Translations under genes and position numbers: made by a program
The notes under the pieces: model-generated
What the model was told of the DNA's origin: nothing
Database searches by the model: none
The model's input: only the letters and a program-made list of their open reading frames with translations
Source: Desulfurococcales archaeon
Lineage (GTDB): Archaea > Thermoproteota > Thermoprotei_A > Sulfolobales > Acidilobaceae
Direction: 5' to 3'
Length of the DNA: 38,113 nucleotides
NCBI GenBank assembly: GCA_015521205.1
Contig: WAOQ01000004.1
Location: 1 to 38,113 of the forward strand
Shown here: positions 3,013 to 3,291 of the stretch, piece by piece
Layout: every line of letters starts with the position of its first letter
How positions within the stretch are numbered: position 1 is the stretch's first letter

Positions 3013-3183
3013 TGGTGGGCCCGGGGGGACTCGAACCCCCGACCTACGGGTCTCCCCGCGCTCCAGTAATAGTTCATCCCCCAGGTTCGCCGGGGTCGGT
3101 AGACCCGTATTTCCCGTCGGAAGCCTATGCGGCTTCCTATTCGCGGGTCTTTTTGTTTGCGGGGTTCACTGGAGCATCGGCCC
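3013..3183 (-). ncRNA. tRNA-like RNA: intact T-arm, acceptor 3' strand and CCA, but no recognisable anticodon (split/multi-intron tRNA half, decayed tRNA or novel tRNA-like RNA)
   Basis: Minus-strand 3' end …AGGTC-GGGGGTTCGAGTCCCCC-CGGGCCC-A-CCA is a canonical tRNA 3' half. Upstream are GCGGG-GAGA-CCCGT, 8-bp arms GCTCCAGT/ACTGGAGC, hairpin GGAAGCC-GCATA-GGCTTCC and a 5' GGGCC. Confidence 0.6.
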
Positions 3184-3291
3184 TGCCCCGTCCCCGGTTT
3201 ATTGGATAATTAGGATGGCGTTTTTAGTGTTAATGTTAAGGATTTGCGGGGTTCGTGTTGTGCGCCGGGGTCCCCTCCACATAGGCTATTA

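What the first reader, a model, noticed from the sequence alone, without database searches (positions are those of the whole stretch)
3013..3183. tRNA-like RNA with CCA, acceptor 3' strand and T-arm but no anticodon
On the minus strand, 3013-3053 reads as a textbook tRNA 3' half: AGACCCGT-AGGTC-GGGGGTTCGAGTCCCCC-CGGGCCC-A-CCA. Upstream there is no standard 5' half. The region holds dense complementarity: GGGCC (3179-3183) can pair with the acceptor GGCCC; GCTCCAGT (3175-3168) pairs with ACTGGAGC (3067-3060) where a D-arm would be; GCGGG-GAGA-CCCGT replaces an anticodon arm with a GNRA-type tetraloop; and an insert of about 100 nt carries GGAAGCC-GCATA-GGCTTCC. CGGGTCT (3107-3101) can pair with either AGACCCG at 3150-3144 or AGACCCG at 3053-3047, so two exclusive folds exist. 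Possible explanations are a 3' half of a split or multi-intron tRNA (known in Thermoproteota), a decayed tRNA, or a novel tRNA-like RNA. The pairing and the canonical T-arm argue against random decay.
Basis: partly seen in the sequence, partly recalled or inferred. Interest (0 to 1): 0.75.

Follow-up and report, generated by a model that had tools for sequence, protein, structure and literature searches.

The report
Split tRNA-Trp gene, 3' half
The odd tRNA tail in this archaeal genome is the back half of a tryptophan tRNA whose front half is encoded elsewhere in the genome and must be joined to it as RNA, a rare arrangement apparently not reported before for tryptophan.

Summary
Window 3195-3013 (minus strand) is the 3' half of a split (trans-spliced) tRNA-Trp(CCA). 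The missing 5' half was found on another contig of the same genome (G000:C35:17623-17653, +). Its trailer pairs over 14 perfect base pairs with the leader at 3195-3182, and the junction forms a canonical bulge-helix-bulge at positions 30/31. A second, ordinary 117-nt intron lies at 37/38, which is why no anticodon was visible next to the T-arm. Joining the three exons gives a 77-nt tRNA-Trp cloverleaf. Three species of a sister genus show the same split with coevolved leader and trailer; 35 other members of the family and 21 outgroups in the order have an intact gene, many with an intron at exactly the split site. No intact tRNA-Trp was found in a 95%-complete split relative. Gene order shows that the break lies inside an ancestral Nudix/tRNA-Trp/HTH/tRNA-Asn block. 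Split tRNAs are a known kind, and the 30/31 site is known for tRNA-Lys(CUU). In the papers I could search, no split tRNA-Trp is described. Transcription and splicing are inferred, not shown.

The parts
3220..3227 (-). A+T-rich TATA-like element (CTAAAAAC) 52 nt before the first exon base, candidate promoter of the 3' half
   Evidence: shuffle p 0.012 in G000; in the g4 species a TTAAAAYC-like element lies at -52/-53 (G003, G015) or CTTTAAAG at -58 (G023) but does not beat shuffles there. Weak support.
3182..3195 (-). Leader strand GGGGACGGGGCAGG; pairs in trans with the trailer CCTGCCCCGTCCCC of the 5' half (G000:C35)
   Evidence: 14 contiguous Watson-Crick pairs; fixed-register shuffles 0/200000
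3176..3181 (-). GCCG|AU: intron-side strand of the central 4-bp helix (pairs with exon CGGC) and first two bases of the 3' bulge
   Evidence: Same motif GGYCGAN|GCTCCAG as the 3' end of the 30/31 intron in many intact relatives
3169..3175 (-). Exon 2a, GCTCCAG = tRNA positions 31-37, anticodon CCA at 3172-3170
   Evidence: Alignment to intronless tRNA-Trp of relatives (L024, L099); ARAGORN on the joined sequence
3052..3168 (-). 117-nt canonical intron at 37/38, with helix to exon 2a, GGGTCTACCGACC hairpin, GGATGA motif and a segment complementary to AGACCCGTA of exon 2b
   Evidence: Orthologous introns of 51-114 nt at the same site in 21 other loci compared
3060..3067 (-). ACTGGAGC, intron strand pairing with GCTCCAGT (exon 2a plus first intron base)
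   Evidence: Conserved with compensatory changes (e.g. CTCCAGATC/GATCTGGAG in L216, GCTCCAGCA/TGCTGGAGC in L023)
3013..3051 (-). Exon 2b: A38, anticodon-stem 3' strand, variable loop, T-arm, acceptor 3' strand, encoded CCA
   Evidence: 100% identity of the shared part to tRNA-Trp of relatives G007 and G026

Best explanation
This is the 3'-half gene of a trans-spliced tRNA-Trp(CCA). Proposed path: the 5' half (G000:C35:17623-17653 plus trailer) and the 3' half (window 3195-3013, minus) are transcribed separately. The G+C-rich trailer and leader anneal (14 bp), building an hBHBh' motif: exon helix GAG/CUC, central 4 bp CGGC/GCCG, bulges GG|G and AU|G. The tRNA splicing endonuclease cuts both bulges and the RtcB ligase joins G30 to G31. 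The same enzymes remove the 117-nt intron at 37/38, and the ends are trimmed to give the cell's tRNA-Trp. The split arose once, in the common ancestor of the window's genus (g1) and its sister genus (g4), by a rearrangement that broke the gene at the site of a 30/31 intron still present in relatives. Shown: both halves, their pairing and its covariation, the cloverleaf, the conservation, the lack of an intact copy in G015. Inferred: separate transcription, cleavage, ligation and use in translation.
For: 5' half found at G000:C35:17623 with zero mismatches to the 31-nt degenerate pattern, at a place where the tRNA model finds no tRNA. Same arrangement in G003, G015, G023. Cognate helices of 14 (G000), 15 (G003) and 14 bp (G015), and 14 bp with one bulged A in G023; exchanged pairs between g1 and g4 reach only 5-9 bp, so leader and trailer coevolved. 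Joined exons give a Trp cloverleaf in all four. 34 family genomes with the whole gene plus G002 with a gene cut at a contig end, and 21 order outgroups, have a contiguous gene; many have an intron at exactly 30/31 with the same flanks ACC...GGCCGAN. G015 (95% complete): 43 tRNAs by covariance model, none tRNA-Trp. Synteny break inside the gene. The four split genomes form one clade in an ABCE1 tree (100/99). Endonuclease catalytic subunit in all four; relatives of the A. pernix second subunit and RtcB in the three g4 genomes.
Against: No expression data. The window genome is only 55% complete, so an intact copy elsewhere in it cannot be excluded from G000 alone. The promoter signal before the halves is weak. 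The G023 helix is interrupted by a bulge and its longest uninterrupted run alone (9 bp) is not beyond chance (1474/20000). RtcB and the second endonuclease subunit were not found in G000, presumably because of incompleteness.
Confidence: 0.95

Rival explanations
1. A decayed tRNA-Trp: the 3' part is the remnant of a broken gene and an intact copy lives elsewhere.
For: The window genome is 55% complete; archaeal genomes of this group do carry orphan tRNA 3' ends, e.g. tRNA-Arg remnants in G015 and G000.
Against: Both halves kept in four species whose ABCE1 proteins are 72-75% identical between genera, with covarying leader/trailer, intact splice motifs, conserved intron helix and no other tRNA-Trp in G015.
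Confidence: 0.02
2. A permuted tRNA gene, or one gene with a very long intron, processed from a single transcript.
For: Permuted tRNAs are known in Thermofilum pendens (PMC3218864).
Against: No 5' half lies within the region examined around the 3' half; in G015 the halves are on contigs C27 (at 180.9 kb of 215 kb) and C14 (at 14.9 kb of 33 kb), so at least about 49 kb apart with genes in between.
Confidence: 0.01
3. A novel stand-alone tRNA-like RNA with its own function, using the alternative folds.
For: Weak sub-threshold tmRNA match (25.7 bits against a gathering score of 47); conserved alternative pairings in the intron.
Against: The pairings are properties of the 37/38 intron, shared by intact tRNA-Trp genes across the order; the T-arm and CCA explain the tmRNA score.
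Confidence: 0.02

Closest known systems
Split tRNA-Lys(CUU) of Staphylothermus marinus, S. hellenicus and Nanoarchaeum equitans (PMC3218864)
   Same: Ligation site 30/31, canonical BHB, G+C-rich trans helix (13 nt in Staphylothermus), separate loci
   Different: Different isotype (Lys, not Trp); no additional cis intron is listed for it in Table 1 of that paper
[quoted passage not shown]
   Same: Related archaea (A. pernix is G012, same family as the window genome); 14-bp G+C stem; in T. aggregans the break in gene order lies inside the tRNA
   Different: Site 37/38, halves adjacent in the genome, different isotype
Split and tri-split tRNAs of Caldivirga maquilingensis (Fujishima 2009, as reviewed in PMC4090602 and PMC4033280)
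   Same: Non-canonical split sites, including 29/30 in tRNA-Ala; combination of canonical and non-canonical junctions in one tRNA
   Different: Three-piece tRNAs there; here two pieces, with the canonical junction still a cis intron; different isotypes
tRNA-Trp intron acting as box C/D guide RNA (Haloferax volcanii; Clouet d'Orval 2001, cited in PMC3491384 and PMC4090602)
   Same: Intron at 37/38 of tRNA-Trp with segments complementary to the anticodon region and to the 3' exon
   Different: No RUGAUGA box C in any of the 22 introns compared here; CUGA in only 5 of 22, and not in the window's

Membership tests
Archaeal split (trans-spliced) tRNA | 5' and 3' parts encoded at separate loci | tested here: met
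   G000 C35 and C4; G003 C44 and C56; G015 C14 and C27; G023 C242 and C150
Archaeal split (trans-spliced) tRNA | Joined exons form a complete, isotype-consistent tRNA | tested here: met
   77-nt cloverleaf with CCA anticodon by ARAGORN in all four genomes
Archaeal split (trans-spliced) tRNA | Bulge-helix-bulge motif at the junction | tested here: met
   GAG/CUC, CGGC/GCCG (4 bp), 3-nt bulges GG|G and AU|G, read from the sequences; duplex folding gives -43 to -50 kcal/mol for cognate pairs and about -30 to -34 for G000 exchanged with g4
Archaeal split (trans-spliced) tRNA | G+C-rich complementary leader and trailer | tested here: met
   13-15 bp, 0/200000 shuffles at fixed register in three genomes; G023 has one bulged A
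Archaeal split (trans-spliced) tRNA | No intact gene for the isotype | tested here: met
   G015, 95% complete: none among 43 tRNAs. In the window genome itself inconclusive (55% complete)
Archaeal split (trans-spliced) tRNA | Each half has its own promoter | tested here: inconclusive
   A+T-rich elements at similar places in all four, but mostly not better than shuffles
Archaeal split (trans-spliced) tRNA | Both halves transcribed and joined in vivo | not testable with these tools
   Needs RNA
Box C/D guide RNA (tRNA-Trp intron type) | Box C RUGAUGA and box D CUGA | tested here: not met
   No RUGAUGA in 22 introns; CUGA in 5 of 22, not in the window; only a GGATGA-like motif recurs
Permuted tRNA | 3' half just upstream of the 5' half in one transcript | tested here: not met
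   Halves on separate contigs in four genomes

The most novel reading that the evidence does not exclude
The 37/38 intron carried in the 3' half is itself a functional conserved RNA: a two-state element whose segments pair alternately with each other and with both exons (anticodon loop and AGACCCGTAG), so that trans-joining at 30/31 and cis-splicing at 37/38 are ordered relative to each other, or a modification of tRNA-Trp is guided. Trans-splicing would then depend on a cis element inherited from the intact gene.
Probability: 0.15. Interest if true: 0.7.

Novelty: new member of a known kind. Interest (0 to 1): 0.55.

Why it matters
It adds tryptophan to the list of isotypes made by trans-splicing and places the split in a densely sampled family where intronless, 30/31-intron, 37/38-intron and split forms of the same gene coexist. 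That makes 'introns become splits' (late splitting) directly testable: the split site, flanks and BHB of the intron in relatives are those of the trans junction, the break in gene order is visible, and the split has lasted through the divergence of two genera with coevolving helices. tRNA-Trp(CCA) is needed for every UGG codon, so trans-splicing would be essential in these cells. It also shows why tRNA finders miss such genes.

Tried and rejected
Naming the organism by a genome-contig scan with the window's triosephosphate isomerase returned only distant archaea; the kinship came instead from recognising G012 as A. pernix K1. A first impression that the 37/38 intron is a box C/D guide RNA was tested and not upheld. 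An apparent lack of the 5' half near the 3' half in g5 and g11 genomes was a pattern artefact: one extra base in the D-loop; those genes are intact. An apparent lack of tRNA-Lys(UUU) in g4 was an ARAGORN mis-call of an intron-containing gene, GGGCTTTTAACCCG. A learned promoter matrix did not discriminate well. My early notes give the split as 29/30; counting with position 17a makes it 30/31. Rfam at E<=1 gave only sub-threshold matches (tmRNA, mascRNA) explained by the T-arm and CCA.

Full report
What is in the window. On the minus strand, 3051-3013 reads as positions 38-73 plus CCA of a tRNA. ARAGORN and Rfam at gathering thresholds find only the neighbours, tRNA-Asn (3367-3292) and tRNA-Val (2890-2813), and a 5S rRNA.

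Identity. A search of 60 related genomes with the locus gave matches over the last ~50-105 bases in most of them. Reading those loci shows tRNA-Trp(CCA). The intronless form in G026 is GGGCCCGTAGCTCAGCCAGGCAGAGCGGCGGGCTCCAGACCCGTAGGTCGGGGGTTCGAGTCCCCCCGGGCCCACCA. Other relatives carry an intron at 37/38 (GCTCCAG|...|ACCCG), an intron at 30/31 (GCGGCGG|ACC...GGCCGAN|GCTCCAG), or both. In the window, GCTCCAG (3175-3169) is preceded by GGCCGAT, which is the 3' end of such a 30/31 intron, but no 5' exon precedes it. The same holds in G003, G015 and G023, the three species of genus g4.

The missing half. A pattern search for the 5' exon (GGGCCCGTRGCTCAGCYNGGNAGAGCGGCGG, up to 3 mismatches) in these four genomes found, beside known tRNA-Lys, Met and Ala genes, one orphan 5' exon in each: G000:C35:17623-17653 (+), G003:C44:5502-5532 (-), G015:C14:14925-14955 (-), G023:C242:9989-10019 (-). 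The G000 place is not among the 27 tRNAs that the Rfam model finds in that genome. The exon is followed in G000 by G-CCTGCCCCGTCCCC, whose reverse complement GGGGACGGGGCAGG is exactly the window's 3195-3182. In G003 and G015 the trailers A-CUCCGUCCGCCCC and A-CCCCGUCCGCCCC face leaders GGGGCGGACGGGG; in G023 the pairing has one bulged A. Trailer and leader in g1 and g4 differ, yet each pairs with its own partner and poorly with the other genus's (14-15 bp cognate against 5-9 bp exchanged; -43 to -50 against about -30 to -34 kcal/mol for G000 exchanged with g4). Shuffles at the fixed register never reached the observed run (0 of 200,000 for G000, G003 and G015).

Junction. Reading the paired halves gives a canonical hBHBh' motif: exon helix GAG/CUC, central helix CGGC/GCCG (GUCG in G003), 3-nt bulges GG|N and AU|G, then the trans helix. 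Cutting between the second and third base of each bulge joins G30 to G31 (the 31-nt exon includes position 17a). Joined with GCTCCAG and ACCCG..., this is a 77-nt cloverleaf with U33 and anticodon CCA in all four genomes. Position 30/31 is also the ligation site of split tRNA-Lys(CUU) in Staphylothermus and Nanoarchaeum (PMC3218864, Table 1).

No intact copy. G015 is 95% complete; the tRNA model finds 43 tRNAs there and none is tRNA-Trp. The window genome is 55% complete, so the same statement for it alone would be weak.

How widespread. Of the 48 genomes of the family, 4 are split (g1, g4), 34 have a contiguous gene, one (G002) has an apparently intronless gene cut off by a contig end, and 9 gave no tRNA-Trp. 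Twenty-one genomes from other families of the order that I read all have a contiguous gene. One of the genomes, G012, is Aeropyrum pernix K1: its single contig has 1,669,696 bases (my knowledge of that genome's size) and the split tRNA-Asp halves lie where PMC3218864 puts them. A tree of ABCE1 puts g1 and g4 together with support 100/99, so one splitting event is enough. In that single-gene tree the clade lies nearer to families f4, f7 and f10 than to the rest of f1, so I do not lean on its exact placement; f10 includes G044, which has both introns, the expected ancestor of the split form.

How it broke. In intact relatives, A. pernix among them, tRNA-Trp sits between a Nudix gene and a small HTH gene followed by tRNA-Asn; in G008 the DUF1512, M24 peptidase and ABCE1 genes lie a few kb downstream. 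In the split genomes the 5' half keeps the Nudix and PP-loop genes upstream, the HTH gene downstream is inverted, and the 3' half sits after tRNA-Asn beside DUF1512/M24. The break in gene order is therefore inside the tRNA. The exact rearrangement is not resolved; a tandem duplication with complementary loss would explain why tRNA-Asn is now upstream of the 3' half, but this is conjecture. The Clp1-like kinase gene near the 5' half is suggestive by its eukaryotic relatives' role in tRNA splicing, but there is no evidence of a link.

Processing enzymes. The splicing endonuclease catalytic subunit is in all four genomes; relatives of the second A. pernix subunit (34-37% identity) and the RtcB ligase are in the three g4 genomes. 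Not finding the last two in G000 fits its incompleteness.

The 37/38 intron. The window's intron (3168-3052) is longer than most because of an extra hairpin (GGAAGCC-GCATA-GGCTTCC), absent from g4. Across 22 loci the recurring features are a helix between GCTCCAGN.. and ..NCTGGAGC with compensatory changes (most loci), a GGGTCNNNNGACC hairpin, a GGATGA-like motif and a segment complementary to the 3' exon AGACCCGTAG. Some archaeal tRNA-Trp introns are box C/D guide RNAs (PMC3491384, PMC3218864), but the defining boxes are not conserved here, so I do not file it there.

Novelty. A 2014 review counts 29 trans-spliced tRNA genes for 12 anticodons and its text never mentions Trp (PMC4033280); PMC3218864 lists Asp, Lys, Gln, Glu, His and iMet among the split ones; later searches of the open library found no split tRNA-Trp. 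Subscription papers and tRNA databases were not searchable, so 'not reported' is limited to this library.

Noticed in passing
window 2994-2984 (-), and downstream of tRNA-Trp in L008-L017, L025, L026 and of tRNA-Lys in L206-L209, L241, L243: A motif GGGCTCCTAA(C) (or close to it) recurs about 15-35 nt after the CCA end of tRNA-Trp and tRNA-Lys genes across the order; possibly a termination or 3'-processing signal. Not after the window's tRNA-Val or tRNA-Asn.
   Followed up: partly
L242 (G015:C10, about 105853, 106836, 107778); L255/L261 (G003:C18); L253 (G000:C45:256): Extra copies of the last ~48 nt of tRNA-Arg genes behind or away from the intact gene, like attachment sites left by integrated elements.
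   Followed up: partly
L304:214-3069 (-) (G015:C23): RtcB ligase gene is a 951-aa frame in which about 450 residues interrupt the family match after ...GVGYDVN and before CGVRVMV..., the look of an intein; same in G003.
   Followed up: partly
L008, L010, L011 (g4), inside the 37/38 intron: The g4 introns contain GGCTCCAGACCCG, a 13-nt copy of the spliced anticodon arm of the mature tRNA; L009 holds a copy of the 3' exon start (GGGAGACCCGTAG). Unexplained.
   Followed up: no
L147:3597-4652 (-): A Clp1-like polynucleotide kinase gene lies 0.5 kb from the 5' half in g1 and g4 and was not seen next to intact tRNA-Trp genes.
   Followed up: no
G000 and relatives: tRNA-Lys and tRNA-Trp have nearly the same 31-nt 5' exon, differing in a base or two in the D-loop, so a 5' half could in principle serve both; the tRNA-Lys genes seen are intact.
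   Followed up: partly
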